From Ceratobasidium sp. AG-K (taxonomy: Eukaryota > Basidiomycota > Agaricomycetes > Cantharellales > Ceratobasidiaceae): a stretch of DNA of 64,000 nt. Where the stretch lies: NCBI GenBank assembly GCA_037039685.1, contig JAWNGF010000005.1, positions 558,001 to 622,000 of the forward strand, read 5' to 3'. A model generated the notes under the pieces. That model was given only the letters and a program-made list of their open reading frames with translations, did not search any database and was not told the DNA's origin. Numbering within the stretch: the stretch's first letter is position 1; every line of letters starts with the position of its first letter. This document shows, piece by piece, positions 2,976 to 63,171 of this stretch. The translations under genes were made by a program, and so were the position numbers.

Positions 2976-4246
2976 TTATGTCAGCCAGTTGCCATATGCA
3001 AGGTCACTGTGCTTTTTGGCTACCAAATGAGTCATGTTTGGCCTTGTTTGGATCTGTGGTTGGGGAGAAATGCAACATCTGCCAAAAAGGTTCTTGCAAT
3101 CAATTGTTTGCAAGGCATACATGGATAACAAAGTCAGACAAAATCTGTAGTTAATGGACCCCCCCTTAGCCTTGATCACCTCCCTCATCCTATTGGGCAT
3201 GCTGCTGATCAGATTCTGACACAGCTCTGGCTCCACCTTCTCCCACTCCACCTGAAACCTTTCCCACAGCTCCAAAACCCCCCTTGGAGGATGTTCATGC
3301 TCCCCCAGCCTCCTTTTGATGATGCCCCATAAGTTTTCAATTGGATTGAGATCTGGGGAGTTGGAAGGCCATTCCATGACCTCAAAACCATTGTCAGCTA
3401 GCCAATTTGTTGCCAATTTGGACTTGTGAGCAGGAGCATTGTCCTGTTGGAAGATAATGTCTTCCACCTCCTTCCCATGATACTCCAAAGTCTGCATCAA
3501 CTCATCCTCCAAAATCTCCACATAGACCTCCTTGGTAACTGTGTCTTCAATCTTGGTAGCATAGCCAGGCCCATCCCAACAAAAACAGCCCCAAATCTGA
3601 ATAGACCCTCCACCTGAGTGAGCTGTGGGCTGGATAGCTGCACCACTAAGCTCCTGGCCAGGCCTAATCCACACCCATTGTTGGCCATCTGACCCTAGGC
3701 GGTTGATTTTGGTCTCATCTGACCACATGACCCCTTTCCAGTCCTTGACAGTCCAGTGGCAGTGGGCATGAGCAAAGGATAGTTAAGCATTGCAGATATG
3801 TTTAGGGAGTTTGGGCTTTGTAACCTTCTTCTTGGCCTTGAAACCAGCATCCTTGAGTGTCTGGCAGACAGTTTCACGGCTAAGAGTGTGCCCCTCAGCT
3901 GTCCTGTATGTCCTAGCCACAGAGGAAGCAGTTGCAGAGTTGCCATTGGTGACAGAGCAAACCAGGTGGTGAGTTGTAGCAGGGGTGACTTTGAGAGGAT
4001 GGCCTGGGGGTTTGCAAGGAAGGTTGGGACAGTGTATATTGCGCAGTTTAGAGATGTGTCCCTCACTAACTCCAGTAGTCCTAGAGATTTCAGCATGACA
4101 GAGGCCAGCATCAAGCTTAGCAAGCACAGAAACAAGCTTGGAGGGGGAAATGGCCTTAGGCATGAAGGACAAGAGCTGGAGGGGTGCTGCAGTCCTGGGT
4201 GGTGAGCAGGGTGGTAGATATACAACTGGGGGTGCCACTGACATCA
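2976..4246 (-). pseudogene. Tc1-type DD34E transposase, one internal stop
   Basis: The frame runs from the D insertion point (4,246) to about 2,976. The N-terminal half holds a helix-turn-helix region (LVSVLAKLDAG...ISRTTGVSEGHISKLR) and a second DNA-binding segment. The catalytic half has WSDETKIN, then QQDNAPAH, then SPDLNPIENLW. There are 34 residues between the second Asp and the Glu, which defines the Tc1 DD34E type. A TAA at 3,783-3,785 interrupts an otherwise open frame between the two halves, and element D separates the extreme N-terminus (about 19,341-19,420). The frame runs past the usual C-terminal end to 2,976. The enzyme would cut and paste the element at TA sites; this copy is very probably inactive. 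Confidence 0.88.
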
Positions 4247-4801
4247 TGTTGCAACCCTCTATGCCGGTTGACCAACAACAGTGACTGTTCTTGCCTTAGT
4301 CATAGAGACTGGCCTCAATATGCCTGACAGGCTCCTTAGACTGTTTGCTAAGTTGCTAGTGCAACCTTAGCGTCAATATTGATGATGGTCAAAGGCCCAC
4401 TTAGATGAGAGACAAAGGCTGTAAGGCCTTTGGGACTTAGAGTGCACTCTGAGGGGAGAGATGATGAGGCAAAGCAAGCTGGAGTAATTCCATGCTTGCA
4501 AGCCAGTATATATAGCCTGAGGCAAAAATGCCTCAAAGTGGTACAATACAAATACTGGCCAATCAGGCACCAGTATCAGTCAGCAATCACAAAGTACTTC
4601 TGGAAGAATATTCCAGAAGCACAATCCTTCCAAGGGAAAAGATCCAGAAGACAGCAAGGCCGTATGGGCCATGGTGACACATCATCCATACACTGCACTA
4701 AACGCAGGAGAGGGCACTACATTGTACATTGGGCGCTTAAGGGGCCAGAGTCCAAGCCACACACAGTCAGAGTCCAAGGATGTTGTACATGGGTCATGAC
4801 A
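4247..4801 (-). repeat. 3' LTR of element D
   Basis: 555 bp, TGTTGCAACC...TCATGACA in plus orientation, a near-identical partner of 18,786-19,340. It is flanked on the left by CATCA and on the right by the polypurine tract. It contains a TATATATA box near 4,509. Confidence 0.93.
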
Positions 4802-4815
4802 TTGCCCCCCCTTTA
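4802..4815 (-). other. Polypurine tract of element D
   Basis: On the minus strand this reads TAAAGGGGGGGCAA directly before the 3' LTR. It is the expected primer for plus-strand DNA synthesis. Confidence 0.8.
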
Positions 4816-4841
4816 GGTCGGGCATATGGGACCATGCATGA

Positions 4842-6107
4842 CTACTTTTGGGCAATCCATTCCTTGATTGCCACCCATCCCTCTTGTTCTGCCAGGGCCT
4901 GCATGTCCTCCTCCAGATGCACGTTCATCGCATCCCACTTTGCCTGCTCAAAGTCCCGCTCCTGCTGGAGCAGTTGGGAGAGAGCCTGGGAGCATTGACG
5001 TTCCTGTTCAAGGAGGCACCAGCGTTCCCTGTTGACCCAGGCCTCTTGGCACGCGTTGTGCCATTGTTCGAGGGCAGGGGGGGAGATCTCCCCCCATTGG
5101 ACCATTCCATGGGCCTCAAGGACCTCGGTGTCACAAGGCATTTGGTCGTATGCCGGGGCGGGGGGTGTGTCATTGAGTTCCTGCTCAACCTCAGCCATGA
5201 GACGTTTGATTTGGGCCCGGGCCCGCTCCATTGCTTCATTGAATTGCTGCTTGAGCAGCAAGGGATTGGCGGGGATTTCAGGAGGGGCAGGCAGCTCATC
5301 GGCTGCCAGAGAGGGAGCAGGGACCATGGGTGCTGGGGGGGTCCCGGAGGACTGCCGCATAGGAGGGTTGGCTTTGGGGCGCTTCCCAAAAGGGGGCTTG
5401 GTGGCGGTGGGAGCTGGGCTGGGTCCCCAGGTTGCTCAACTACTTTTGGCCTGCTCCAGTGCAGGCCAATTGTTGTTGGCTTCTGTTGTGGTAGGCCGGT
5501 ATGAGTAGTTGCTAGAGGTGAGGGGGTTTGGCATACTGGGTTTGGCCTTGGGGATGTTGACGTCCCATCCCAACTCAGTGTCCTCCTCCACCCACATCAA
5601 TCCTTCTCCTGCCTCCCATCGTGTCGCCTTGTAGGATAGGCAGCAATCGTCGATTCACTTCCACCACCCGTCTTCCCTCCACTCATATCCCATGTCGACA
5701 TTCCAGGCATCGGCACTTTTGAGGACCACATCATGGATGGTGTGGCCGATGCAACCTTGGCAGGTGTATATCTTGTGCTGCTTGAGGGCGGCACGGTCAA
5801 GGGGCTTTGCATTGGGTCGCCCCACCCATAGCATATTGCCGTAGTCGTTGTGCTTGAGGGACTTGAGGTCGGGTGTCCAGCTGAGCACATTGCGCTTCTT
5901 GATGGGGATATACCCCAGTCCACATCCTGGGTCAAGGACTTTGGCCAATTCCTTGGCCTCGATGAAGGTCCAGGGGGCAGTCCCCCGGTTGACGACGGCG
6001 TACTTGCCTTGTCCAGCAAGTTGGAGAGCCCTGCCAAAGGCAGTGGTGGAGGCATTGGCCCGGCAGGCAGTGTGGATGGCGGCCTTTGAGATGCGGACAG
6101 CAGGCAT
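4842..6107 (-). pseudogene. 3' accessory reading frame of element D (two stops)
   Basis: One frame runs from ATG 6,107 (MPAVRISKAA) to a stop at 4,842, broken by in-frame TGAs near 5,655 and 5,440. It is about 420 residues in all. The first 150 residues contain WVGRPNAKPLD and then CQGC (5,751-5,762) followed by VVLKSADAW. This core is also present in the 3' frames of elements B and C. The C-terminal 170 residues are Pro/Ala-rich, then strongly charged and helical (QQFNEAMERARAQIKRL..., QALAEQEGW), probably coiled coil. I recognise no known domain. It lies after integrase in its own frame. It could be a retroelement accessory protein. Confidence 0.6.
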
Positions 6108-6347
6108 GTTTTAGTTAAAACAGGTTGTTGGTGTTGGGCTTGGTAGAGCAAGTTTGGTTGAGTGAGCTGAGTAGCTGGAGTGATGATTTCTGCCGCTCTG
6201 GCTCTTGTCCTTTTATCCTTCAACAATTTCACATGCGGTTTGATGTTTGGCAGAAGTGGTGCCAATGGGAAGTCCTTCTGGAATTTCCTTAGCAGTTCTG
6301 TCATTTTGGCAAACTTTTCCACTCATTCTTCAGTGTCTTCTTGGGCG

Positions 6348-9300
6348 CTATATCCCTTCCATAGGTCTGGTCTTGAAGTCCTTAGTAAGGAGCCATAGGT
6401 GATCACCTTCCTTGTATTGTTGTTCAGGGGTTTCTTTGGTGATTCTGTGGTATTCCATCATTGCTTTTGTTTCTTCCCATACGGTGTTTAGGTTTTCCGC
6501 CCACTGGTTCCCTTCTGGTGATTCAGTGACATATTCCTCTATGGACCATTTGGGGTTCTTTCCAAAGACCACTTTGAAAGGAGTTTTGCCAGTTGTCCTA
6601 TTGATGTGATTGTTGTGACAAAATTCCGCAATAGGTAGCCATTTAACCCAGTCGTCCTGGTTATAGTTGCAAAAGATTCTTGGGAATCCTTCTAGCCACT
6701 TGTTTGTGTTTTTGGCTAGCCCATCAGTTTGTGGATGAAAGGCCATGCTAAAAGTGGGGTGTATCCCTAGTCGCTTATACACTGCCTCCAGGAAGTGTGA
6801 TTTGAAGGTTGTTCCCCTATCAGAGACTGTTGTTTTGGGGAGCCCATGGATACGCCATATGTTCCGCACAAAGATCTTGGCTAGCTGTTCTGAGTTGGTG
6901 CTTTCATTGCATGCAATGAAATGTGCCATCCTTGAGAAGCAATCTACTACCACAAGGATGCTATCATTTCCTTCTGATTTGGGTAGTTTGACAATAAAGT
7001 CATATGCAATATCTTCCCAAGGTTTCTCCAGTATCCGCACGGGTTTGAGTGGGACTGGTTTTTTGTGTCCCTTTCCCCTTTGGCATACTTCACATGTGTC
7101 CACATATCTATTGATTTGTGCCTTTATGCCAGGCCAGTAGTATTTCCTTGCTACAAGCTCAAGCGTCCTTGCTTGTCCTTGATGTCCTGCTATTGGACTA
7201 TCATGTGTAGTCGTAGGATGTTTAAGCGCACATCCTTATCTTCAGGGATGACAATCTTCCCCTGGTACCAGAGGAGATCTTTGTTGTACTCATAGTCCTT
7301 GAATTGCTTTTTGACTGTGGGAGGCAGATCCTCCTTTCCTTTGACCGTTGTGGTAAGGGTTCTGAGATTTTCATCTTCTTCCTGCCCTTCCTTGATGTCT
7401 GATATGATATCCACCCATAGGTCTGCCAAAAAGCCTTTGAAAGTTTTGGCAGCAATCATTACTTGTTCCACATTGGGAATATCATCATGGTCGCTTCTTC
7501 TAGACAGGATATTGGGTTTTGTTCCCATTTTTCTGGGTCGATAGTGTATCTCATAATTATATGAGCTAAGGAGCAGGTACCATCGTGCATGTCTTCTGTT
7601 GAAGTTTCTATTACTTCCCCAATATATGAGATTCTGGTGATTGGTGTATACAATTACCGGTAGACTAGTCCCTTCCAGGTGTATGCGCCAATGAGTAAGT
7701 GCTTCTATGATAGCTAGGAGCTCCTTATCATGTGTATTGTAGTTAAGCTCAGCTGGTTTGAAGCTTTTTGATAAGAAGCCAATGGGATGCAAATACCCAT
7801 CTGATTGTTGTTGAGACAATATTGCTCCCATTGCCACCCCTGAGGCGTCGGTTTCTAGGTAGCATTGCTTTGATTCGTCAGGGTGTGCAAGGACGGGTTC
7901 TTCCAAAAATTAGTTGCTTGAGTTCTTCAAATGCCTTTTGATGCTCTTCTCCCTATTCCCACTTCTTATCTTTATGAGTGAGCTGAGTCAAGGGTTTTAC
8001 AACAGAGGAGAAGGATACAACAAATCTTTGGTAGAAGTTTGCAAATCCAATGAAGGATTGGAGTTTTTTTACTGTTTTTGGTGTGGGCCATTCCTGGATA
8101 GTTTTGACTTTGTCCTTGTGCATGGAGATACCATGTTTGTCCACAACAAATCCCACCCAGTTGGCTTTCTTCTAGAAGAAGTAGCATTTTTTTGATATTC
8201 CCATAGAGATGATGTCCTTGCAAGAGTTCCAATACTTCTTGGAGATCTTGTGTGTGTTTCTCGCAACCTCTGGAAATGACTAGGATGTTGTCAATGTATA
8301 CAACTACAGACACCCCTTTCTTGTATCTAAAAATGTGGTCCATGTATTGTTGGAAGGTAGACGGGCCGTTCTTTAGTCCCATGCCCATTACCGTGTATTC
8401 GAAGAGACCTTCCGCTGTTCTAAATGCTGTTTTCCATTTGTCTCCTTCCTTGATTCTGATGTTCCAGAATCCATTCTTCAAATCTAGGGTAGAAATGAAA
8501 GTTCTTTGTCATGTTCTTCCCCAGTTTTCTTGAAGACATCAAGTAGTTCTTCCAGAAGCAGTACAGTGTATCGATCAGCTATTGTTATAGCATTTATTCT
8601 GGTCTAGTCTATCACTGTTTGGAGGTTGGGTATGGCTTGTCCCGGTTTTAGTGCCTTTTCAACAAAGAAGGCCCCGGCGGCAACGGGGAATTTACTTGGC
8701 CTTATTCTTCCTGAAGCCAATTCCTCTTTCACATATTGCTTCTGTGCTTCTCTTTCTTTCGGGGAAAGAGGGTATGCCTTTCTGGGTTTGGGCAGCGCTG
8801 CTCCCTCGATGAGGTCTATTGTGCAATCCCATTCCCTATGTTCTGGCAGCTGGTCATATTTTTCTTCATCAAAGACGTCTTGGTAGTCCTGTAATTCTTC
8901 TGGTAGGCCTTCCAATTTAGCTGCTTTAGCTTGGATAAGATTGTCACGCCAGTTGATTTCAAAGGGTGCCCATGTAATATCCGGGTTGACTTCTTTTAGC
9001 CACGTCATTCCCAGTATCATAGGTTGTGTTCCTGTTGGCATGCAGTAGAGCTTTTGCGTGAAGGTTCTTCCTTGGAGCGCAAAGGTGACCTTAGTCCGGA
9101 AGTGTATAGTTCCCTTCTCCGTTTTTCCATTGATCATTTCAACACTTCTGGGAGTTTGAAGTTCAATGAGAGAGAGATTATTTCTCCTAGCATACTTGAT
9201 ATCCATGAAGTTTCTTGTAGATCCTGAGTCAATGAGTGTTGGTGTTTTATCCGTGATTCCCTCTATCTTTGTATATACCATGGGTGATTCATTTGATGCT

Positions 9301-9350
9301 TTGCAGTAATATACATTTGATAGAGGTTTGTTTGAGGTATCACTAGACAT
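6348..9350 (-). pseudogene. Pol of element D (protease, RT, RNase H, integrase), broken
   Basis: The blocks shift among three frames. From 9,350: aspartic protease (LIDSGSTRNFMD), a linker, and the RT N-terminus to 8,604. The RT core is at 8,481 (WKTAFRTAEGLFEY, then YIDNIL where YIDD is expected) and its C-terminus at 8,156 (FIGFANFYQRF). RNase H is at 7,906-7,190 ([31 protein letters not shown]). Integrase is at 7,103-6,348 (CEVCQRGKGHKK, TVSDRGTTF, HPQTDGLAKN). The expected catalytic Glu of integrase is Lys in the last motif. The frame ends soon after the GDHLWLL motif, and the chromodomain seen in the other elements is missing or deleted. It is inactive. Confidence 0.9.
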
Positions 9351-9367
9351 GGTGCTAGGACACCTAT

Positions 9368-11371
9368 CTAGTTTTCTGACTCCGAGGCAGTTGAGACTAC
9401 CTCTTCAATGGTAGCGGAGACTTCTGCCGCTTTTCCTTTGATTGGTTGTTTCCCTTTGTCAACGTAGGCCCATCCTGTGTGGCAATCCTTCATCATATGG
9501 TTGGGTTTGCCACATTTGATGCACAGGTTCTCCTTCTTGTGGCGTTCCTTTTCTTCATTGGGTACTTGGATGATAGTAGTATTTCTGCCAGTGTTTGGGC
9601 CTTGAGGTTTCCTTTGATCCTTCTGTTTTCCTTTATCCAATTTCGTCAGATTCAGTTGCTTGGCCTGGAGTGCGAGCTGCATCCAATCTTGCAAGGTCCT
9701 TGCATTATGGTGGTTGTAGTTGTGCATTTCTTCCCTTATGAGTTCCTGTTTGATGGTGTGTTGCAGGCCATGTCAGAAGCGTGTGATGAGGGCGTCTTTG
9801 TTCCATTCTACGTCTTGCTGTAGAAGGCAGAAGTCTGTGATGTATTCCGACGCGCTCTTGTTTTGGTAAAGCTTCTGTAGTTTAGTTTCAGCATCTAGTT
9901 GTTTAGCCAGATCCGTCCATTGTTCAATAAAAGCTGTCTGTAGTTCATCCCAGCTTGTGAGCCAAAGATGGGGACGTTGATCATTATAGGCATTCAGGGT
10001 GGGTTGTGCCCAATTTGCTGGTTGTCCTTCTTTCATATTGATCAAGAAGGTGGCAATTTTGCTAAGATCAGTGTCATAGTAGTTTTCATTGATGCAGAAG
10101 TAGGCCTTCATTTGTGAGAGAAAAGTTTCAGCAGCTGTTCCTCTTGTTCCATCAAAGGGTTTTGGCATTTTCTGTTTAGATGATGGTCTGCCTCCATTTC
10201 CTCTCTGAGTCTGGATGATGATTGTTTGGTCCCTTTGCCACACTTGATGTCCTGATTGATTTTCCACATGGGAAGATGGAGGGGATGGGGACGATGATGG
10301 ACTGGGCACTCTTCTTGGTCCACCCTGTCCATGACCCAAGGGCAATGATGGAGGAAGCAGAGGGTTGGGAGGAGGTGGTGTTCTCCTACTTTCCTGTGAG
10401 CGTCGCTCATTTCTATCATCCATTTGCCGCTTGCCAATATTTTGGACGTCAAGCATGATTTGGTCTACAGTTGTTTCTGTCCTTCCAATGTGTGTAGCCA
10501 TGGCAAGTAGTGCTAGTTGTTGGGCTTCCGTAGTGGTTTGGTATTCCCTTTACAGGGCTTGGATTGTTGCCTCCATTGTTTCTAGTTGGGTATTTTTGTC
10601 CATTGATAGACAGATTGATACCTGCTTGATGACAACCAGTTGTTCAGTCAATTTGTTCCATAGTGTTTGTTGCTGTGTCCATTTGGTTCTGGACTTGCTG
10701 CATTACATTTTCTACAGTTCCAATCCTTTCTAAGAAGGTATTGACTGTATCTTTGGTTTGTTGCCCAATACATTCAAGTATCTGTAAGGAGTTAGTTGTG
10801 TCAGCAATTTGAGTGTCCCACCTTCTTTCCAGGGTCTCAATTCTTGCTGCCATGATTGCGTTGTTTTCCATGTATTCTCTCTGTATTCTGTCATAGATGG
10901 CCTGGAAGACTTCCACTTCTCTGCCTTCTGTGTTGACAATTCACTGGTTCCTTTGGATAGTTCTATCAGTTGATGTTGTATCAATTGACCCACTTGCGCT
11001 GGTGCGCAATACTGATCTAGATGGTACTGAAGAAGCGTTGTCTCCCTTTACATAGTCAAGTCTTGGCATAGGGTTTTCTGTATTGCCACTATTGGATTTG
11101 TGATGGATTGTTGAGAAAGTAAGTGGTGACCATTGTACGGTTATCCTGGGATGTGAAGGACCTGGTGTGGCATTTCTTGGTTGGTCACCGACAATCTGTA
11201 TCTTTCGTTCAGCCCGTGGTGATTCAATGATTGGGACGGTTATTGTTATTGGTGCCGGTGGCTCAGTTCCCGTTGTGTTGGGTATTGTTATTGTTCCTGG
11301 TGTAGTGTCTTCTACTTTGGCCAAGTTTTCCCTGATGTTTCCCAAGCCTCCTGGGACAGTTCCTGCGCTAG
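9368..11371 (-). pseudogene. Gag of element D, main part
   Basis: This continues from the short N-terminal exon-like piece at 18,582-18,735, from which it is separated by element B. It contains a helical region (10,916-10,644: ARIETLERRWDTQIADTT...), a Pro-rich linker, and a capsid-like helical core (10,170-9,773: FDGTRGTAAETFLSQMKAYF..., LQKLYQNKSASEYITDF). A CCHC zinc knuckle, CIKCGKPNHMMKDC, follows near 9,500. Stops occur at about 10,941, 10,644 and 9,773, with one frameshift near 10,550. The true end is at 9,368, 18 nt before pol. Confidence 0.85.
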
Positions 11372-11376
11372 GTGGT

Positions 11377-11831
11377 TGTTGTGAGCTAGCTCTCTCCATT
11401 GGACTTGCCTGTTGTCTTGCCCACCTGTGTTCTCTTTTGCTTTGTGTTTCTGTTTCTGTTTGCCGCGTTGCCACCTTCTTGTGGTTATTCTGTTACATTG
11501 TGTAATGTGGCTGTGCTTTTTACAAGTCATGTCTGTTCATACAGCATGACTCACTTGGACACTCCTGACTGGCTGCTGTGTATGACTCGCGTGGCTGCGC
11601 CTTGTATGACTCGGCCACTTTCTGAATATATATAGAGAACCAACAAGCCTGGCAACCCCAGCTTGTTTTGTCTCGTCTAACATCCCCTTTGAGTGACACT
11701 TTGAACCACCCCTACCCTCAAGAGCGTACAGACGCTTAAGTGTGTTGCAGTTCAAGAGGTTACTTAGGTCTTAGTGCTGTCCACTCTCCATTGCGGCTTG
11801 TCTCATAGACACCAAGAAGAAGCTTACCACA
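11377..11831 (+). repeat. 5' LTR of element B
   Basis: 455 bp. TATATATA at 11,627-11,634 is followed about 33 nt downstream by AGCTTGTTTTGT (11,660-11,671), the likely start of the transcript. It ends ...CTTACCACA and matches 18,127-18,581. Confidence 0.93.
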
Positions 11832-11833
11832 TT

Positions 11834-11845
11834 ACAAAACAAGCT
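11834..11845 (+). other. Self-priming primer-binding site of element B
   Basis: ACAAAACAAGCT lies two bases after the LTR end. It is the exact reverse complement of AGCTTGTTTTGT at 11,660-11,671, the predicted 5' end of the element's own RNA. No tRNA 3'-end complement is apparent. In the Tf1 family the RNA 5' end folds back on such a site to prime reverse transcription. Confidence 0.8.
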
Positions 11846-11853
11846 TAACAATC

Positions 11854-13838
11854 ATGTCCATTCAGGAGGACACCGGATCGCGTCTCACAACTCCATTATC
11901 AATAAGGAGAGGACCAAGTAGGGCTTCAAGACCTACAAGCTCCCTCAACGAGCAAGATATTGCACAAGCACGGGCCAGAGGACCAGCAAGGTCTTGCCCA
12001 CAAAGCCAGGCCTCTATGCCTGGAACATTTAACACTGAGAATGTTTCAGTCATACAAGAAGAACCCACCATTGTTACTAGAGAACCAGGCGATATTACCA
12101 ACAACCCCACACCAGTCACAATTTGAATCCCTATCTCAAACACAACTCCAGGCCCATCATGTCCACTATGGCCTATGGGATCCAGAAGACAGTTTTTTTC
12201 CCCTCAGCCTGAAGCTCATGGGGGTGTATCCCTTGTTCCTATCAGACCCCCCCCCACGCCGCACATTTCCCACGCTCCACAAGTACCCCCAGATTGCGGG
12301 GACTATCACCAAAAGCCAGTCCGGTCCCAATAAACTCTCAGGACGCGACGCCAGTTAATCCAGCACCGCCATATGTACCACAAGGGTATTCCCAGCAACC
12401 AACAGCAACTGAAGGCCAAGAAGCCCCTGGGATTCCCACATCAAGTTCCAGTTCCAGCAGTAGGACTATGATTAGCAATCTTGATGACCTTGACAATCTT
12501 CACCTCGGAAGACACAATGCACTCTTAAGGATTATTGATGGAATGAGGATAACAATCGATAGACGACTCAACGGGTTAGAACAATCTACTCAAGTGTTGG
12601 CCAACAACCAACAAATCTTCAACAATTCCCTCAACAACCTACAAGGAACCCTGACAGATATCCTTACCGCTGCACAAAACAGTGAACATAACAGCTTCCT
12701 GGTTGGTCAAGACGTAATCCGCCTAAGAAACGAAGTCACAAACACACAAGGACTGGTAAACAATGTACAAGAAGACCTTAACACCACAAGGCAGGCACAG
12801 CTAGCCTGGAATGAAGCAATCACCCAAGGACTAGAAGGACTAGGGGGAGACAGAAGGGTTGCTATCGGACAAATTAACACCATGCAAGAGACAATCAACA
12901 ACATGTGCGAGCAGATGGACAAAGCATCCCTACATGCCGTCTCTCCTCCCCACCCTGAAGCAGAGTCTACCAGACTTGACGAATTGGAACAAAGGCTACG
13001 TCAGCTTTCTGAAAACCCTGACAACAGAAGGGAAAACAGGCGTCCAAAAGTAACTAGACCAGAAGCTTTTGACCGGAAGAAAGGAGAGGGAGCAGAAATG
13101 TTCATCACCCAAATGGAGAGCTATTTTGTCAGGTTGGGCAACCAATACAGCTCAGGACAAGAACAAATTAGAGAAGCTCTAGCAAATTTCAAATCGGATA
13201 ACAGATCTGCTACACATTGGGCACAGGTGCTACTCCGATCCATGAACAATGGAGTACCTGATCCAAACCTAGTGTCATGGGAAACATTCAAGTTGCACTT
13301 CATGGAACAATTTAGCAACCCTAACAAGAAGGCCAAGGTGGAAGCCGACATCCGTAAAAGCAAACAAGTCAACTCAGTAGCAAATTATGCAACAGAATTC
13401 CGCTTCCACATGGTTGACGTCAACTGGGGGGAAGAAGCCCTTATCAACCAATTCAAGGAAGGACTCAAGCCGGAAATCAAAACAGAATTGGCACGATTTG
13501 AACTCTCCCTCATCAATGAAGATGGAACTGAAAGGCACCTTAACCTTAACCAATGGATCACTCTTGCGATCTCCATTGACCAGAAATTGCAACAGATCAA
13601 GGCATTCACCGGGAAGAAAACACCCCAATCGACCACTACTGGGCAAACCTCTACAAAACGGCTTCCAGACAAAGTATACAAGGCAAGAATAGCATCAAAC
13701 CGATGCCTGAAGTGCGGCCAAGAAGGCCACCGTTTGCTCAAATGCTCATCCAAGGAGTGGATAACAACTGAGCCCAGCATAAAGGGAAGAGAAGCTACGA
13801 TAATAGAAGATTTGGGAAAAGAAGGGGTCTCCCTCTAA
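11854..13838 (+). pseudogene. Gag of element B
   Basis: It starts at ATG 11,854 (MSIQEDTGSR). An in-frame TGA at 12,124-12,126 matches the stop in element A, and a frameshift follows near 12,300. From 12,294 the frame is open to 13,838. It carries a Ser/Pro-rich N-terminus, long helical stretches (LEQSTQVLANNQQIFNNSL...), a capsid-like core (RPEAFDRKKGEGAEMFITQMESYF..., FKEGLKPEIKTEL) and a CCHC zinc knuckle CLKCGQEGHRLLKC near 13,705-13,750. Its role is assembly of the particle and RNA binding. Pol begins 2 nt after the gag stop, in another frame. Confidence 0.85.
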
Positions 13839-16800: not shown

Positions 16801-17318
16801 GCAAAAAGACCCTCAAAGAAACTGGATAACAAGAAGCATGGACCATTTGTTGTGAAGCGGAAGATAGGATCACATGCTTATGAACTCACCCTGCCAGCAA
16901 CAATGAGGGTACACCCAGTTTTCCATATCGACTTGCTCAGCCCCTACATGGAAGACACAGACTTCAAGCGAAACCAACCCTGACCACCGCCAATAATTAC
17001 TGAAGAAGGAGAGGAAGAATATGAAGTAGAAAAGATTTTGGACTGGAAAGAGACAAAGGATGGTCTTTTCTACAGGGTCAGATGGAAGGGTTATGGAAGT
17101 GAAGAAGACATGGAACAAAGGGCGGAAGATTTTGGTCACCTTTCAAAAATCATCAAGGACCTTAAACGCCAACACCCGGAAGCTCCCACACCATCTAACT
17201 ACGTCCCAGGAAAGATAAAAGGCAGAGGGGGCGCAACCGGTAGTGATATCTGCAAAACTTGCTACTACTCCAGAAAACACTTCCAACTCAACGCTCTAAA
17301 TCCTTTTTGTTCTCCACC
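13841..17318 (+). pseudogene. Pol of element B with C-terminal chromodomain, broken
   Basis: The domains in order: protease (PIDSGASKNFMDI, about 13,955) and RT (14,630-15,100; KTAFRTKEGLFKYIVMPFGLKNAP, YIDDILVFSK, with the catalytic YIDD intact). RNase H comes next (15,310-15,500; FLETDASGVAMGAIL, DVHDKELMAII). Integrase follows, with an HHCC region (LHHDSRIAGHQGQ..., CETCQRTKG) and core (VVVDWFSRMAHF, ISDRGTTF, HPQTDGVTERIN). The chromodomain is at about 17,015-17,180 (EYEVEKILDWKETKDGLFYRVRWKGYG). Stops lie at 14,486, about 14,563, 15,674 and 16,981, with a frameshift near 15,780. Most stops look like single C-to-T or G-to-A changes when compared with element C. Confidence 0.92.
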
Positions 17319-18084
17319 ATGCCTGCTGTCACCCATGCCACCATTGCCAACAACCTCACCCGCGTCCTCGAAGAACCTGCCTTTGCCACAGCAAGGATCC
17401 TTGACGCCAGAGCAGCCCTCTACGTCTTCAAGAGGTTGCAACAAGGCTCCGGAAGAATGCACTTCAGGGCCTCGGACAACATCCTCCACTCAGACCTGGG
17501 GGGAATTCCAGTGGGTCGGAAAGAAATGGCTGACACACATGCAACTTCTGTGGAAAGACATCTTTGTTTGCTGAGGATGCGCTGCATTCCAGGTCTCAGA
17601 GGTTGTCCTCCTCTCCACCCATATGCTCGGAGTGGTCAAATGGGGACAAGAAGGAGCGTACTCAAGCAAGTGGGTACCGGGGTATGACGGAAGGCAGCCA
17701 ACGCTCCGACCTAGATGGAATGATGCCTGGGACATCAACTACAAGAGGGACCTGAGCAACTGGAAGATGGAAAGGGGAAGGTACCAGAAGGAAAAATTCA
17801 AATGGGCGCCGAACTGGTGGAAGTGGGAGGAGGCGGACATGTCAGCATGGAAGGAGGCGGAACCTGACATGCGACAATGGGATGAGGAGTTTGTGGAGAC
17901 CCAGAAGAGGGTTTTGGACTGGTCCAAGGCCAACTGGACAAGGGAGGAGACATGGGAGGAATGGGAAAAGTTCTTGGATGAGCCGGGTAACACTGTATTC
18001 AATCCCATCGACCTGACCCTGGAGGAGGACAAGGGACTGGAGGAGTACATGCTTGCAAAGGGCAAGGATTGTGGGATCCAGTAG
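17319..18084 (+). pseudogene. 3' accessory reading frame of element B
   Basis: It begins at ATG 17,319 (MPAVTHATIANNL), in a different frame from pol and overlapping its open C-terminal tail. A one-base gain in a G run near 17,503 shifts the frame relative to the copy in element C. A stop at 17,572 follows, after which the frame is open to 18,084. It would encode about 255 residues, rich in Trp and acidic/basic residues. The WVGKKW...C-x-GC...EVVLLSTHML core aligns with elements C and D. The C-terminus reads PIDLTLEED (18,004-18,030), an Ile-Asp-Leu-Thr plus acidic run like a SUMO-interacting motif. I recognise no known domain family. Confidence 0.65.
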
Positions 18085-18126: not shown

Positions 18127-18581
18127 TGTCATGAGCTAGCTCTCTCCATTGGACTTGCCTGTTGTCTCGCCCACCTGTGTTCTCTTTTGCTTTGTGTTTC
18201 TGTTTCTGTTTGCCATGTTGCCACCTTCTTGTGGTTATTCTGTTACATTGTGTAATGTGGCTGTGCCTTTTACAAGTCATGTCTGTTCATACAGCATGAC
18301 TCACTTGGACACTCCTGACTGGCTGCTGTGTATGACTTGCGTGGCTGCGCTTTGTATGACTCGGCCACTTTCTGAATATATATAGAGAACCAACAAGCCT
18401 GGCAACCCCAGCTTGTTTTGTCTCGTCTAACATCCCCTTTGAGTGACACTTTGAACCACCCCTACCCTCAAGAGCCTACAGACGCTTAAGTGTGTTGCGC
18501 TTCAAGAGGTCACTTAGGTCTTAGTGCCGTCCACTCTCCATTGTGGCTTGTCTCATAGACACCAAGAAGAAGCTTACGACA
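18127..18581 (+). repeat. 3' LTR of element B
   Basis: 455 bp, TGTCATGAGC...CTTACGACA, matching 11,377-11,831 with roughly 15 differences by eye. It is followed by the target duplication GTGGT. Confidence 0.93.
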
Positions 18582-18783: not shown

Positions 18784-18785
18784 AA

Positions 18786-19340
18786 TGTTGCAACCCTCTA
18801 TGCCGGTTGACCAACAACAGTGACCGTTCTTGCCTTAGTAGTAGAGACTGGCCTCAATATGCCTGATAGGCTCCTTAGACCGTTTGCTAAGTTGCTAGTG
18901 CAACCTTAGCGTCAATATTGATGATGGTCAAAGGCCCACTTAGATGAGAGACAAAGGCTGTAAGGCCTTTGGGACTTAGAGTGCACTCTGAGGGGAGACA
19001 TGACGCGGCAAAGCAAGCTGGAGTAATTCCATGCTTGCAAGCCAGTATATATAGCCTGAGGCAAAAATGCCTCAAAGTGGTACAATACAAATACTGGCCA
19101 ATCAGGTGCCAGTATCAGTCAGCAATCACAAAGTACTTCTGGAAGAATATTCCAGAAGCACAATCCTTCCAAGGGAAAAGATCCAGAAGACAGCAAGGCT
19201 GTATGGGCCATGGTGACACGTCATCCATACACTGCACTAAACGCGGGAGAGGGCACTACATTGTACATTGGGCGCTTAAGGGGCCAGAGTCCAAGCCACA
19301 CACAGTCAGAGTCCAAGGATGTTGTACATGGGTCACAACA
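18786..19340 (-). repeat. 5' LTR of element D
   Basis: 555 bp, partner of 4,247-4,801. It is followed on the right by the target duplication CATCA (19,341-19,345). A TATATATA box lies near 19,045. Confidence 0.93.
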
Positions 19341-19735: not shown

Positions 19736-20202
19736 TGTCATGAGCCAGCTCTTTCCATCAGGCTTGTCTTGCGTCTTGCATGCCTGCTCTTGTGTTTGTT
19801 GTTCTGTTTGTCTGTTGTTTGCCCTTTCCTGCACCGCGTTGCCACGTTCTTGTGGTTGTTCTGTTACATTGTGTAATGCGGCTGTGCTTTGTACAAGTCA
19901 TGACTGCCCGCGCAGCATGACTTACTTGGACACTCCTGACTGGCTTGTATGTATGACTCATGTGGCTACGCCTTGTATGACTTGGCCACTTTCTGAATAT
20001 ATATAGAGGACCAACAAGCCTGGTAAACCCAGCTTGTTTTGTCTTGTCAAACATCCCCTTTGAGTGACACTTTGAACCACCCCTACCCTTGAGAGTCTAC
20101 AGCCACTTAAGTGTGGTGCAATTCAAGAGGTCTCTTAGGTCTTAGTGCCATCCACTCTCCTTTGCGGCTTGTCTCATAGCCACCAAGAAGAAGCTTACAA
20201 CA
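19736..20202 (+). repeat. 5' LTR of element C
   Basis: 467 bp, TGTCATGAGC...CTTACAACA. TATATATA at 19,998-20,005 and AGCTTGTTTTGT at 20,031-20,042, the likely transcript start. Confidence 0.93.
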
Positions 20203-25100: not shown

Positions 25101-25607
25101 ACCATCCAAAAAACTGGATAACAAGAAGTTTGGACCCTTACCTGTGAAAAGAAAAATATATTCTCACACTTATGAGCTGGATCTACCACCCACTACAAAG
25201 AAGCACCCTGTTTTCCATATTGGCCTTCTAAGTCAGTACAAGGTTGACAAGGAATTCAATTGGAACCAACCACATCCTCCACCAATTGTCACGGAAGAAG
25301 GAAGCAAAGAATATGAAGTTGAGAAAATTGTTGATTGGAAAATGACAAAAGAAGGGGTTTTCTGTAGAATCTGATGGAAAGGATATGGAGAAGAAGATGA
25401 TATGGAACAACGGGCAGAGGATGTAGGGCACCTAACCAAAATAGTGCAGAAGTTTCTGAAGAAACACCCTGAAGCTCCAACACCTGCAAATTTCAAGGGG
25501 AGGAAAAAAGTCAGAAGGGGGAGAGAATGGGAACCCATCTGCAAAACCTGCAACTACACCAAGTCCCACACTTCACTCTATGCTTTAAATCTTTTTTGCT
25601 CTCCACA
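22185..25607 (+). pseudogene. Pol of element C with chromodomain, broken
   Basis: Protease (MLIDSGASQNYVDI, about 22,260) is in one frame, then shifts near 22,400. RT, RNase H, integrase and chromodomain then share one frame to about 25,500. The RT motif is VYIDKILVLSK, so the second catalytic Asp of YIDD is Lys. RNase H has FLKTDTSGVAMGAIL, where the first catalytic Glu-Thr-Asp context is altered. Integrase shows CKQCQRAKGT, VVVDRFSRMAHF and HPQTDGITE followed directly by a TGA (24,754). The chromodomain (EYEVEKIVDWKMTKEGVFCRI, then TGA, then WKGYG) is also interrupted. Stops are at 23,941, about 24,169, 24,754 and 25,372. Confidence 0.92.
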
Positions 25608-26372
25608 ATGCCTGCCGTCACCCGCTCCACCATTGCCAACAACCTCACCTGCGTCCTCGACGGACCAGCATTTGCTACGGCAAGGATCCTCAACACCAGA
25701 GCTGCCCTCTATGTCTTCAAGAGGTTGCAGCAAGGCCTGGGCAGAAAGCAATTCCGGGTGTCAGACGACATACTCCACTCAGACCTGGGGGAGTTCCAAT
25801 GGGTTGGAAAAAAATGGCCAACACAAATGCAACTCCAACAAAAGGACATCTTTGTTTGTCAAGGATGCACCACATTCCAGGTCTTGGAGGTGGTCCTCCT
25901 GTCCACCCATATGCTCAGAGTTGTTGAGTGGGGGCAAGAAGGGGCATACTCAAGTGAATGGGTACCAGGTTATGACAGGAGGCAGCCAACACTCTGACCC
26001 AAGTGGAACAACACCTGGGATGCCAATTACAAATGGGACCTGAGCAACTGGAGGATGGAGAGGGGTAGATACCAGAGGGAGAAATTTGAGTGGTTGCCAA
26101 ACTGGTGGAGGATGGAGGAGGCAGATGTGTCAGCATGGAAAGAAGGAGAGCCAGACATGTAACAATGGGATGAGGAATTTGTGGAGGCCCAGAAGCGCGT
26201 GTTGGACTGGTCCAAGGCAGATTGGACAAAGGAGGAGACATGGGAAGAATGGGAGAAGTTCTTGGATGAATGGGGTAACACCATGTTCAACCCCATTGAT
26301 CTAACCTTGGAGGAGGACAAAGGACTGGAGGAGTTTATGCTACGGAATGGGAAGGACTGCGCTGTACAGTGA
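25608..26372 (+). pseudogene. 3' accessory reading frame of element C
   Basis: ATG 25,608 (MPAVTRSTIANNL) to stop 26,372, about 255 codons in one frame, with two internal stops (25,995 TGA and about 26,159 TAA). The core is WVGKKWPTQMQL, then CQGC (25,857-25,868), then VVLLSTHML. The second half is dense in Trp (PKWNN, LPNWWRMEE, ETWEEWEKF). It ends with PIDLTLEED (26,292-26,318). It overlaps the open tail of pol in a different frame for more than 200 nt, as in element B. It is the best preserved copy of this family in the window. Function unknown. Confidence 0.68.
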
Positions 26373-26413: not shown

Positions 26414-26880
26414 TGTTGTGAGCCAGTGCTCTCCATCAGGCTTGTCTTGTGTCTTGCCCGTCTGCTCTCATGTTTGTTGTTCTGTTTGTCTGTTGCTTGC
26501 CCTTTCTTGTGCTGCATTGCCACATTCTTGTGGTTGTTCTGTTACATTGTGTAACGGGGCTGTGCTTTGTATGAGTCATGACTGCCTGCGCAGCATGACT
26601 CACTTGGACACTCCTGACTGGCTTGTATGTATGACTCGTGTGGCTATGCCTTGTATGACTTGGCCACTTTCTGAATATATATAGAGGACCAACAAGCCTG
26701 GTAAACCCAGCTTGTTTTGTCTTGTCAAACATCCCCTTTGAGTGACACTTTGAACCACCCCTACCCTTAGGAGTCTACAGCCACTTAAGTGTGGTGCAAT
26801 TCAAGAGGTCTCTTATGTCTTAGTGCCGTCCACTCTCCTTTGCGGCTTGTCTCATAGCCACCAAGAAGAAGCTTACAACA
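26414..26880 (+). repeat. 3' LTR of element C
   Basis: 467 bp, TGTTGTGAGC...CTTACAACA, preceded by the polypurine tract TAGGGGGGAGTAA (26,401-26,413) and followed by the duplication CTGTC. Confidence 0.93.
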
Positions 26881-38898: not shown

Positions 38899-39797
38899 GT
38901 ACTAGGCCATTCCAAAGGTTTGGAAACACGTGACCACTTCGGGCGATATTTTGTGCGTGTCCTGGGACTCACGGGCCATAGGCTATATGTACCAGACAGA
39001 AGGGGGTGTATATAGAATAAAGAGCTTCTTTTCCTATATGTGCCAAATCCTTGTAATAAAATCGCCACTCCTTGGCGAGTTTTGTGGCATACAGTCGGGA
39101 GGGTTGCCACCATGGTCTTATGGGTGTACAGGAGCAACGGCATAAGCTGGGAGCATACTCACTAGCTGAGCAGATATAATACATCCAAATGCAAATCATA
39201 TGTGCTTTTTACATGGCTTTTATTTGTGCAGGACTAAGGTAAGTCCCCCACTAGTTTGGTCCATGATTCTGCATTGAGAGAATTTGGGAATCATAAGCAC
39301 CAGAACGAAATAGATGAGTATTTAAAGCTATAATCATTGTTACATAGGCCCAAAAAGCCTTCAAATTTCGCTTTGGCGCCTTTTGAGACCTCATTTACTT
39401 AATTGAGGGCAGCAGTTGGTTGTGGGGGAGGTGCTTCTATCGATGACATTGCAGGTATCTTGGTCATACATTGGCGGAACTCGTGGAAACGCGCCAGAAA
39501 GATGAATTTGGATGTATTATATCTGCTCAGCTAGTGAGTATGCTCCCAGCTTATGCCGTTGCTCCTGTACACCCATAAGACCATGGTGGCAACCCTCCCG
39601 ACTGTATGCCACAAAACTCGCCAAGGAGTGGCGATTTTATTACAAGGATTTGGCACATATAGGAAAAGAAGCTCTTTATTCTATATACACCCCCTTCTGT
39701 CTGGTACATATAGCCTATGGCCCGTGAGTCCCAGGACACGCACAAAATATCGCCCGAAGTGGTCACGTGTTTCCAAACCTTTGGAATGGCCTAGTAC
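38899..39797. repeat. Perfect 292-bp inverted repeat with 315-bp spacer
   Basis: The left arm 38,899-39,190 and right arm 39,506-39,797 appear to be exact reverse complements end to end (GTACTAGGCCATTCC... and ...GGAATGGCCTAGTAC). The spacer is 39,191-39,505. Each arm contains an open stretch (MPLLLYTHKTMVATLPTV...) and a TATATAG word, but no known protein. No clear target duplication flanks it (CTGAT left, CGCCA right). It could be a foldback transposon, a recent inverted duplication, or a source of hairpin RNA. It separates HHE copies 2 and 3. Confidence 0.88.
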
Positions 39798-55976: not shown

Positions 55977-56421
55977 TGTCACGACCTTTTCCTTCTCTCT
56001 TTGTTTTGTCCTGTTTGTCTTGTGCTTGGTCTCGTTCTTCTCGCCTTGGCGCATTTAGTCGCCTTTATGTAAGCCATGACCGCGGGACATGCCTGCCTGG
56101 CCTGTTCCCTTGCCTCCTTGTTGTCCATGGGCTTATCACGTTTCCTTTGTCTTGCCTTTGCTTCTCCCAGACTCTTGTCTTTTCTTGTTCTGGTTTCCTT
56201 TGTTGCTTGCTCTCTATTGTACATAGCCACAGTAGGTAGTATATATACCATCGACACAAGTCTTGTCTCCACAAGACTTGTTCTCTTGTTATTTCCCCAT
56301 CACTCCCCGCGTGACTCACTTAGGCCTTAGTGGCCGCCCATTTGACCTTTGCCGTCGTCCCAACCCCCATCCTCACTGCCTGTGGAGTCTCGGCCTCCAA
56401 GGTTTGGTTAGGGTTGTGACA
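55977..56421 (+). repeat. 5' LTR of element E
   Basis: 445 bp. TATATATA at 56,240-56,247 is followed 31 nt later by ACAAGACTTGTTCT (56,271-56,284), the likely RNA 5' end. That RNA end also overlaps a local ACAAGTCTTGT / ACAAGACTTGT inverted repeat. Confidence 0.92.
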
Positions 56422-61500: not shown

Positions 61501-62253
61501 AAAGCAAGCCTGACCCTGAGTAAAGAACGGGACAAGGAATATGCGGACCAACGGTGTCTAGAGGATCCCTTCATCATTGGGGACAAAGTTTGGCTTAGTC
61601 ATGATCACATCTCTTCGAATTGACCATCAATCAAACTTTCTCACAAGCCTCTGGGTCCCTTCACAATCTTGGAAGCAGTTGGAAGGAATGCGTACAAACT
61701 GGAACTTCCACCATCCATGACCATACATCCAGTAGTCAACATATCCCGCCTTGCCAAGTATGAAGAAGATGAGATTGAGGGACGCGTTATTGAACCACCA
61801 CCACCCATTGAGACCCCTGAGGGTGAGGAAGAATATGAAGTTGAACAGATCCTGTCCTCCAAGGTGGAAAGAGGAATCCTCAAGTACTACGTCAAGTGGA
61901 AGGGCTACACGTCAGAACACAATTCCTGGGAACCGGTGGAGAACCTTGGCAACGCATCAGAACTCATTAGTGAGTTCCACAGGGAACATCCAGAAGCCAT
62001 CAAGGGAGTCACCAAGGTTACAAGGAAGCATCGCCATGAGGAGACAAAGGACGATTCAACTGCCGAAGAAAAGGAAGAACGGCCCATTCGGCGTTCCAAA
62101 CGTATTAAAGAAGCGGCAGGAGTCCAAGCTCCCCACCAAAAGGTTTTTACTTCCCTCTCCTGCGTGCTTAACACATCCACCCCTCGTACTCACACTCCTG
62201 CGCCATGCCTGCCCCCGCCAATCCTCCAACTCGTTCATGGTCCGTGTCTATGA
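58575..62253 (+). pseudogene. Pol of element E with chromodomain, broken
   Basis: Protease-like domain first (MIDSSASGNFVNSEYI; the usual DSG is DSS). RT follows (LKSGYNLVRVAEEDVYKTAF, VMPFGLTNAPATF, YIDNILIFSK; YIDD has become YIDN). The frame shifts near 59,850, then RNase H ([27 protein letters not shown]) and integrase (LHHDNKAAGHMGQ, CDLCQRSKP, VVSD then TGA then GPTF, HPETDGQTEQIN). A chromodomain at about 61,834-61,990 reads EYEVEQILSSKVERGILKYY then VKWKGYTSEHNSWEP. Stops lie at 60,184, 60,568, 61,147 and 61,621. The final tail overlaps the 3' frame. The chromodomain suggests targeting to modified chromatin. Confidence 0.92.
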
Positions 62254-62701
62254 CAACCTCTATACCTGCTCCAGGTCCTTCAAACGGACGCTGGAACCCA
62301 CCTGCGACGAGGGCCGTTATTGGCACTCAGGCCTCCAGCAGGCCTTCTACTTCATTGTCTCTGGCTGCTATTGGTCAGCTCGTGCCCCCCACTCCTTTGT
62401 GGGCAAGCCCCTTGTGCGCTGGCGCAACTGGATTGCCCTCGACGCCCAAGACATCCACAATGCAGTTCGCTTCATGGATGCCTCGTGCAAGGCCTGTCTC
62501 GGCCACCCATTCGAGGTCATTGACCTCACCCAGGACGACAAATGTGCCGACCTCATCATCGACTTGACGGACAAGGAGGATTGCGGTTTGTGGAAGGGAA
62601 ATGGGACGGCTGAGGACCCATTTGTGTTGGATGACGGGGCGGAGTTTGTGCTTGTGGCCCACGGGCCTTCTGATATGTCTGTTTCGCCTCTTTCCGAGTA
62701 G
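62205..62701 (+). pseudogene. 3' accessory reading frame of element E
   Basis: The start ATG 62,205 (MPAPA) overlaps the end of pol by about 49 nt in another frame. A probable one-base change in the following C-rich run moves the reading to the frame that is open to TAG 62,701. About 165 residues. It contains SFMVRVYDNLYTCSRSFKRT, WHSGLQQAFYFIVSGCYW and, near the end, two motifs VIDLTQDD and LIIDLTDKED (62,516-62,580) that look like tandem SUMO-interacting motifs. It ends SVSPLSE. It occupies the same position as the frames in B, C and D. I see no known domain. Confidence 0.6.
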
Positions 62702-62726: not shown

Positions 62727-63171
62727 TGTCACGACCTTTTCCTTCTCTCTTTGTTTTGTCCTGTGTGTCTTGTGCTTGGTCTCGTTCTTCTCGCCTTGGC
62801 GCATTTAGTCGCCTTTATGTAAGCCATGACTGCAGGACATGCCTGCCTGGCCTGTTCCCTTGCCTCCTTGTTGTCCATGGGCTTATCACGTTTCCTTTGT
62901 CTTGCCTTTGCTTCTCCCAGACTCTTGTCTTTTCTTGTTCTGGTTTCCTTTGTTGCTTGCTCTCTATTGTACATAGCCACAGTAGGTAGTATATATACCA
63001 GCAACACAAGTCTTGTCTCCACAAGACTTGTTCTCTTGTTATTTCCCCATCACTCCCCATGTGACTCACTTAGGCCTTAGTGGCCGCCCATTTGACCTTT
63101 GCCGTCGTCCCAACCCCCATCCTCACTGCCTGTGGAGTCTCGGCCTCCAAGGTTTGGTTAGGGTTGTGACA
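62727..63171 (+). repeat. 3' LTR of element E
   Basis: 445 bp partner of 55,977-56,421, followed by TGCAC. Confidence 0.92.

What the first reader, a model, noticed from the sequence alone, without database searches (positions are those of the whole stretch)
4842..6107. Undescribed 3' accessory protein shared by divergent Tf1-like retrotransposons
All four elements with a 3' end in the window (B 17,319; C 25,608; D 6,107 minus; E 62,205) have a reading frame after integrase starting ATG-CCT-GC (Met-Pro-Ala). In B, C and E it lies in another frame that overlaps the pol tail. D and B/C belong to different families, yet their products share a core: WVG, then about 20 residues, then I-x-x-CQGC (stop in place of Q in B), then VVL-x-S. 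I know of no named domain with this signature. Retention over deep divergence suggests selection while the elements were active.
Basis: partly seen in the sequence, partly recalled or inferred. Interest (0 to 1): 0.78.

Follow-up and report, generated by a model that had tools for sequence, protein, structure and literature searches.

The report
Selected accessory gene overlapping retrotransposon pol
Several families of jumping genes in this fungal genome carry an extra protein gene at their 3' end, written over the tail of the pol gene in another reading frame; selection appears to have kept both readings open, but what the protein does is unknown.

Summary
All four start codons are where stated. 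All four window copies are broken, but naturally open copies are common elsewhere in the genome. Among open copies median dN/dS is 0.21 (D type), 0.08 (B/C type) and 0.37 (E type), so the frame encoded a selected protein. D and B/C products share a core (profile P 7e-6; 0 of 300 shuffles reach it); homology of E to them is not shown.

New here: in all three types the gene lies in the -1 frame of pol. In most open copies pol's reading continues into it (about 350, 144 and 120 codons) to a stop at one aligned place. Codons that would put a stop into pol are avoided inside the overlap (1 of 19 columns against 47 of 69, P 6e-7; significant by itself only in D). A G-poor leader and a purine at -3 (51 of 51) precede the ATG. 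E-type proteins carry paired SUMO-binding-like motifs (15 of 18). 135 of 150 listed E-type pol tails have the gene downstream. Function and expression route remain inferred.

The parts
4842..6107 (-). D accessory frame (421 codons, two internal stops; core domain in 5658-6107)
5597..6322 (-). D pol tail frame running over the accessory frame; its codons begin one base after the accessory frame's codons
   Evidence: frame arithmetic on its coordinates
6108..6157 (-). D leader before the ATG (G-poor in open relatives)
4246..4796 (-). D 3' LTR (97.6% identical to 18785-19335)
18785..19335 (-). D 5' LTR; element B is nested between the two D LTRs
17319..18084 (+). B accessory gene copy, broken by a frameshift and a stop
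17038..17574 (+). B pol tail (chromodomain) overlapping the accessory gene
11382..11831 (+). B 5' LTR as aligned (97.1% to 18132-18581)
18132..18581 (+). B 3' LTR as aligned
25608..26372 (+). C accessory frame (two internal stops)
25402..26043 (+). C pol tail overlapping the accessory frame
19741..20202 (+). C 5' LTR as aligned (93.9% to 26419-26880)
26419..26880 (+). C 3' LTR as aligned
62205..62701 (+). E accessory gene copy: start ATG at 62205, frameshift, conserved product read from about 62240
61669..62253 (+). E pol tail (chromodomain) overlapping the accessory gene
55977..56421 (+). E 5' LTR as aligned (98.4% to 62727-63171)
62727..63171 (+). E 3' LTR as aligned

Best explanation
Shown: chromodomain (Tf1/Ty3-like) elements of at least three lineages in this genome carry a third gene after integrase and chromodomain. 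It starts at its own ATG inside pol, in the -1 frame of pol, and in open copies encodes a protein of 152-394 aa under purifying selection. In most of those copies pol does not end before it: pol's reading runs on as a Ser/Pro/Thr-rich tail, and the accessory gene's synonymous choices avoid stops in the pol frame (clear in D, too few sites to tell in C and E alone). Both readings were therefore under selection while the elements were active, at least in D type. Inferred: the product is made from its own ATG, most likely on a shorter (subgenomic or spliced) mRNA, because the ATG lies in a good start context after a G-poor leader and pol gives no nearby stop for re-initiation. Inferred: the product is a non-enzymatic accessory factor that binds host proteins. 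For E type (paired VIDLT / IIDLTDEED motifs) and perhaps C type (NPIDLTLEE) I think a SUMO-binding adaptor, acting on chromatin, silencing or integration, is the likeliest role (about 0.25). Inferred: the pol tail is selected to stay open rather than for an exact sequence, as expected if it keeps translation going towards the 3' end or only needs to be disordered. Confidence below is for the shown part.
For: NG86 dN/dS medians 0.206 (D, 15 sequences, 105 pairs), 0.084 (C, 15, 105 pairs), 0.373 (E, 18, 153 pairs) at median dS 0.7-0.95; differences are most frequent at third positions of this frame. In C the part beyond the pol stop, read in this frame only, is also constrained (pN 0.076, pS 0.539). 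First pol-frame stop at one aligned place: D Met|Asn in 14 of 18; C Leu|Ser in 13 of 15; E after the second I/V-D/N-L in 13 of 18, three codons earlier in 2 more, earlier still in 3. Synonymous shuffles keep pol open so far in 0.000-0.062 of trials for 14 of 18 D genes; the other four D copies have earlier stops. Stop-forming Leu/Val codons before A: 1 of 19 columns in the overlap against 47 of 69 before other bases; 5 of 5 outside the overlap. Controls without significant loss: K/E/Q NAG before A 15 of 15; T/A/P/G ending in A or G 27 of 49 against 91 of 138; T/A/P NCG 5 of 41 against 27 of 105, P 0.12. Leader G 6%, 6%, 10% against 22%, 25%, 26% upstream (medians); purine at -3 in 51 of 51. 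Paired SIM-like motifs in 15 of 18 E proteins, 0 of 9000 shuffled. The gene follows 135 of 150 listed E-type pol tails, median gap 141 nt.
Against: No expression data. Copies were chosen for open frames and share ancestry, so per-sequence P values are not independent. The overlap boundary was set from where most copies stop. Synonymous divergence is not consistently lower in the overlap (pS 0.53 against 0.38 in D, 0.43 against 0.54 in C, 0.52 against 0.58 in E), and the pol-frame tail has pN/pS near or above 1, so its amino acids are not conserved. Most E and many C sequences taken alone do not beat synonymous shuffles, and in C and E alone the column test is not significant (P 0.14 and 0.21). 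Ile ATA before A/G is rare in the overlap (1 of 18, against 5 of 7 before C/T) but also absent outside it (0 of 3). The codon third-base change falls at the pol stop in E (122 against 121) but not in C (104 against 145) or D (137 against 347). The SIM reading rests on a short motif recalled from known proteins, with a pattern I wrote after seeing the alignment. Both structure models were unusable (pLDDT 39.7 and 33.3).
Confidence: 0.85

Rival explanations
1. The frame is a chance open frame at the 3' end, with no product.
For: D's 3' end is GC-richer than the rest of the element (0.55 for 4001-6000 against 0.43-0.46 for 6001-12000; not so for B, C and E), and the window copies are all broken.
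Against: dN/dS medians 0.08-0.37 at median dS 0.7-0.95; the gene follows 135 of 150 listed E-type pol tails; D-C core homology.
Confidence: 0.03
2. The product is made as a Pol fusion by -1 ribosomal frameshifting, since it lies in the -1 frame of pol, rather than from its own ATG.
For: Same -1 relation in all three types; the frame opens 3-273 nt before the ATG. Some copies have a slippery-type heptamer at -24: AAAAAAC in 4 of 18 D, TTTAAAT in 5 of 15 C.
Against: No heptamer is conserved: any X XXY YYZ in 9 of 18 D, 5 of 15 C and 2 of 18 E copies, at differing places. The ATG context is conserved (purine at -3 in 51 of 51).
Confidence: 0.15
3. An envelope-like protein that makes the element a retrovirus-like agent.
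For: Position between pol and 3' LTR, like env-like plant ORFs (PMC7264820, passages read). C type is borderline hydrophobic: best 19-residue Kyte-Doolittle mean, median 1.56, highest 1.80.
Against: D and E types have no such segment (medians 0.70 and 0.88); the C-type segment was not examined further. No signal peptide search was run.
Confidence: 0.05
4. A Rev-like RNA-export factor comparable to CERV of Cer1: the accessory protein brings unspliced element RNA out of the nucleus.
For: CERV is an LTR-retrotransposon accessory protein made from a spliced mRNA and needed for genomic RNA export (PMC10309623, passages read, parts of the abstract among them); a spliced mRNA would explain expression here.
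Against: No sequence comparison with CERV was made. No AG lies within 30 nt before the ATG in the four window copies (read), though some open D copies have one there.
Confidence: 0.15
5. Pol-frame openness reflects only selection against a long untranslated 3' end (nonsense-mediated decay), not a useful Pol tail.
For: Openness is kept while tail amino acids change freely. NMD of RNAs with long 3' UTRs and viral evasion of it are in print (PMC6277124, PMC2925335; start of abstracts in the search listing only).
Against: Tail composition is similar in three types (40-48% Ser+Pro+Thr), which a useful disordered tail would also give; not separable here.
Confidence: 0.35

Closest known systems
Additional sense 3' ORFs (aORFs) of plant LTR retrotransposons (PMC7264820, passages read)
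   Same: Extra sense gene between integrase and 3' LTR, function unknown or env-like.
   Different: Here it overlaps the pol reading frame for about 120-350 codons in most open copies, is not clearly membrane-bound, and the pol frame also bears marks of selection.
'add. ORF' of fungal Gypsy elements in a 2010 survey (PMC2864245, section 5 read)
   Same: Gypsy elements of fungi with an additional ORF of unknown function.
   Different: No sequence or place given in the section read; cannot tell whether it is this gene.
CERV of Cer1 (PMC10309623, passages read)
   Same: Accessory protein of an LTR retrotransposon, partly in a frame other than the polyprotein's.
   Different: Spliced from polyprotein exons, found in Caenorhabditis; no sequence comparison was made here.
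Proteins with tandem SUMO-interacting motifs, such as RNF4 (recalled, no call)
   Same: Two hydrophobic I/V-I/V-D-L-T cores followed by acidic residues in E-type proteins.
   Different: No known domain found beside them; binding untested.

Membership tests
Chromodomain (Ty3/gypsy, Tf1-like) LTR retrotransposon | Integrase with Tf2-1-like SH3 and chromodomain in pol | tested here: met
   Pfam hits Integrase_H2C2, rve, SH3_Tf2-1 and Chromo in one C-type and one E-type locus; Chromo in one D-type locus whose tested stretch begins after integrase
Chromodomain (Ty3/gypsy, Tf1-like) LTR retrotransposon | Paired LTRs | tested here: met
   LTR pairs of B, C, D, E at 93.9-98.4% identity
Sense additional 3' ORF (aORF) | Sense ORF between integrase and 3' LTR under selection | tested here: met
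Env-like protein | Transmembrane segment | tested here: inconclusive
   Hydropathy scan: D and E types none, C type borderline
SUMO-binding protein | Hydrophobic core plus acidic flank, repeated | tested here: met
   E type only: 15 of 18 have two such motifs, 0 of 9000 shuffles. C type has one NPI[DN]L in 15 of 15; D type not established
SUMO-binding protein | Binds SUMO | not testable with these tools
   Needs a binding assay
Single shared protein family for D, B/C and E | Profile similarity above shuffled controls | tested here: inconclusive
   D-C met (0 of 300); D-E 83 of 300, C-E 7 of 300
Known Pfam family | Match above curated cut-off | tested here: not met
Rev-like / CERV-like export factor | RNA export activity from a spliced mRNA | not testable with these tools
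   no expression data

The most novel reading that the evidence does not exclude
A long-lived overlapping gene pair in fungal chromodomain retrotransposons: an accessory gene whose synonymous codons are held so that Pol can read on through it as a disordered tail, and whose product (at least in one lineage) is a tandem SUMO-binding adaptor through which the element engages host SUMO-dependent control of LTR retrotransposons.
Probability: 0.2. Interest if true: 0.82.

Novelty: new variant of a known kind. Interest (0 to 1): 0.62.

Why it matters
Extra 3' genes in LTR retrotransposons are known, often as env-like or orphan frames. A selected gene read for hundreds of bases over pol in several lineages shows how such elements may gain accessory functions by overprinting. 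The many open copies in one genome make function and expression directly testable. In yeast, Ty1 transcription is already tied to SUMO handling at nuclear pores (PMC8585004, abstract read), so an element-encoded SUMO binder would be a natural countermeasure.

Tried and rejected
Pfam, PDB sequence and PDB profile searches gave no family (best PDB E-values 0.9-2.3, none for C). Three viral-contig scans found no relative. Protein database: 1, 2 and 4 relatives, from metagenomes, one unnamed source and two records labelled Globodera pallida; I take it that few fungal proteomes are held. AlphaFold models of the E product and the D core were too poor to search with. The D-E and C-E homology that I hoped to see by eye fails shuffling. 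Slippery-site frameshifting was considered and not supported. A codon-composition break at the pol stop is present in E only. A lowered synonymous rate in the overlap was sought and not found consistently. A paper on host factors of Tf1 integration turned out to hold the SUMO terms in its reference list only (PMC5741268, one passage). A wider survey of the other chromodomain families, to learn whether they lack the gene, was not possible; the SH3 search shows 1335 first-look candidates, 150 scored.

Rows dropped: the D set of 18 is 16 of the 20 loci plus L012 and L023, which are the same places as L076 and L075; L067 and L074 were left out for broken or startless frames, and the other loci were not put in. 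The C set of 15 left out the window's own locus and its duplicate (L039, L040) and two with stops (L044, L045). The E set of 18 left out the window's own locus and its duplicate (L049, L050) and L051. For dN/dS, D_L012, D_L023 and D_L069 were left out; for overlap rates, four D and one E sequence with early pol stops; for third-base composition these and one more E; for the change-point, the four D. Searches used all 18, 15 and 18. All sets were chosen for open frames.

Full report
What was checked. The window is part of contig C5 of a 53.6 Mb genome in 17 contigs. Four LTR elements of the chromodomain kind end in it. LTR pairs are 97.1% (B), 93.9% (C), 98.4% (E) and 97.6% (D) identical; B sits inside D, with GTGGT on both of its flanks (read). 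All four window copies are broken. D, too, overlaps its pol tail.

Copies elsewhere. For C, 141 of the 150 listed places have no stop within the matched stretch, by my count of the table, and most show an open frame of about 279 codons. I collected 18 D-type, 15 C-type and 18 E-type naturally open genes of 350-394, 254-259 and 152-179 aa. With the E-type pol tail as query, 135 of 150 listed places have the accessory gene on the same strand within 2.5 kb, median gap 141 nt; both lists are capped. Five of the 15 without it are the weakest matches (56-58% over part of the query), four of them with open frames of 1147-1154 codons, probably other families; at least one miss is a close E-type tail (92% identical). 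So the frame is not absent from most related elements in the E lineage; D and C lists were too truncated to count this way.

Selection on the protein. Median pairwise dN/dS is 0.206, 0.084 and 0.373. In C the part beyond the pol stop, where only this frame is read, is also constrained (pN/pS about 0.14 from the medians). The pol tail upstream of the ATG gives pN/pS 0.27-0.33, so the accessory gene is constrained about as the pol tail is in D, more so in C and less in E. Copies were chosen for being open, which removes stops but not amino-acid changes.

One family or more. D and C share a core: hhalign P 7e-6, probability 84.5%, D 51-131 with C 21-99; 0 of 300 column-shuffled alignments reach the score. 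In two D-C pairs the pol tails are 52-53% identical and the accessory cores 29-32%. Open copies read C-R-G-C in 24 of 33 D and C sequences (my count). E is not shown to be related (83 of 300 and 7 of 300 shuffles reach the score). Nothing in Pfam or the PDB matches. Metagenome fragments at 60-88% identity and two UniRef records labelled Globodera pallida show relatives outside this genome; fungal contamination of the nematode data is my guess, untested.

Two readings of one stretch. In all three types the gene lies in the -1 frame of pol. In most open copies pol's frame does not stop at or before the ATG. It runs on to a stop at one aligned place: Met|Asn in 14 of 18 D; Leu|Ser in 13 of 15 C (TGA in 11, TAA in 2); after the second I/V-D/N-L in 13 of 18 E (12 before Thr, one before Met), three codons earlier in two more, and earlier still in three. 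Shuffling synonymous codons within each gene keeps pol open that far in 0-6% of trials for 14 of 18 D genes; the remaining four D copies have earlier stops. In C the figure is 2-18%, and in E mostly not unusual for single genes, though two E genes gave 0.000 and 0.004. A test by alignment column depends less on copy number: inside the overlap, Leu/Val sites followed by A carry a stop-forming codon in any copy in 1 of 19 columns, against 47 of 69 columns followed by another base (P 6e-7); outside the overlap it is 5 of 5. By type the test is significant in D alone (0 of 14 against 23 of 35, P 1.6e-5); C gives 0 of 2 against 14 of 21 (P 0.14) and E 1 of 3 against 10 of 13 (P 0.21). Control codons show no significant loss before A (15 of 15 for Lys/Glu/Gln; 27 of 49 against 91 of 138 for Thr/Ala/Pro/Gly; NCG 5 of 41 against 27 of 105, P 0.12). 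Ile ATA before A or G, which would also make a stop, occurs in 1 of 18 columns against 5 of 7 before C or T, but in 0 of 3 outside the overlap as well. The overlap boundary was set from where most copies stop, so the first-stop position itself is not independent evidence; the codon contrast within the overlap is better evidence, though zero stop-forming cases in copies open to that point follow in part from the definition.

What is kept in the pol tail. Its amino acids change freely (pN/pS 1.0, 2.7 and 1.0), and synonymous rates of the accessory gene are not consistently lower in the overlap. Its make-up is Ser+Pro+Thr 40-48% in all three types. Third-base C is commoner in the overlap than beyond (57 against 44%, 45 against 22%, 64 against 14%), but the break falls at the pol stop only in E. 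Selection for openness, whether for a disordered tail or to avoid decay of RNAs with long untranslated ends, fits better than selection for a precise sequence.

Expression. The 50 nt before the ATG hold 6%, 6% and 10% G (medians) against 22%, 25% and 26% further upstream, and -3 is a purine in 51 of 51. Slippery heptamers are not conserved. Because pol has no stop near the ATG, stop-and-restart is unlikely. A subgenomic or spliced mRNA is my inference; no AG lies within 30 nt before the ATG in the four window copies, though some open D copies have one.

Function. D- and E-type products have no strongly hydrophobic segment; C type is borderline. E-type proteins have two I/V-I/V-D-L-T motifs followed by acidic residues towards their end (15 of 18 by a loose pattern written after seeing the alignment; 0 of 9000 shuffled proteins); C-type proteins have NPI[DN]L before an acidic stretch in 15 of 15. 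That these resemble SUMO-interacting motifs is recalled, not tested. In yeast, SUMO handling at nuclear pores limits Ty transcription (PMC8585004, abstract read). I give a SUMO-binding role about one in four.

Literature. Nine searches listed no paper whose title or abstract start describes this gene. [quoted passage not shown] PMC3248453 and PMC3411680 gave no such gene in the passages shown. Subscription papers and Repbase were not searchable. On checking, I lowered one claim: the env-like rival is now 0.05 rather than 0.03, because the C-type hydropathy is borderline.

Noticed in passing
window 1-64000 (contig C5 558001-622000): The window lies in a long duplication on the same contig: D, C, E and other matches recur with equal identity about 519 kb away (for example 43421 and 562842, 64460 and 583608, 101096 and 620240). 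Real duplication or assembly artefact was not tested.
   Followed up: partly
window 38899-39193 and 39503-39797: Near-perfect 295-nt inverted repeat (99.7%) with a 309-nt spacer.
   Followed up: no
window 42753-43813 and 47667-48731; 45299-45677 and 50107-50481: Diverged direct duplications, 71% and 75% identical, about 4.8-4.9 kb apart, suggesting a duplicated block.
   Followed up: no
whole genome G000: 1335 first-look candidates (150 scored) for the Tf2-1-like SH3 domain, many of the best in open frames of 1161 codons: another large chromodomain-type family whose 3' end was not read.
   Followed up: no
P0005, P0006: Two UniRef proteins labelled Globodera pallida are close relatives of the E-type product; either fungal contamination of the nematode assembly or transfer.
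   Followed up: no
window copies against open copies: Many differences between copies look like C-to-T or G-to-A changes (Arg to Gln, Cys or Trp; Asp to Asn), as from repeat-directed mutation; seen by eye only.
   Followed up: no
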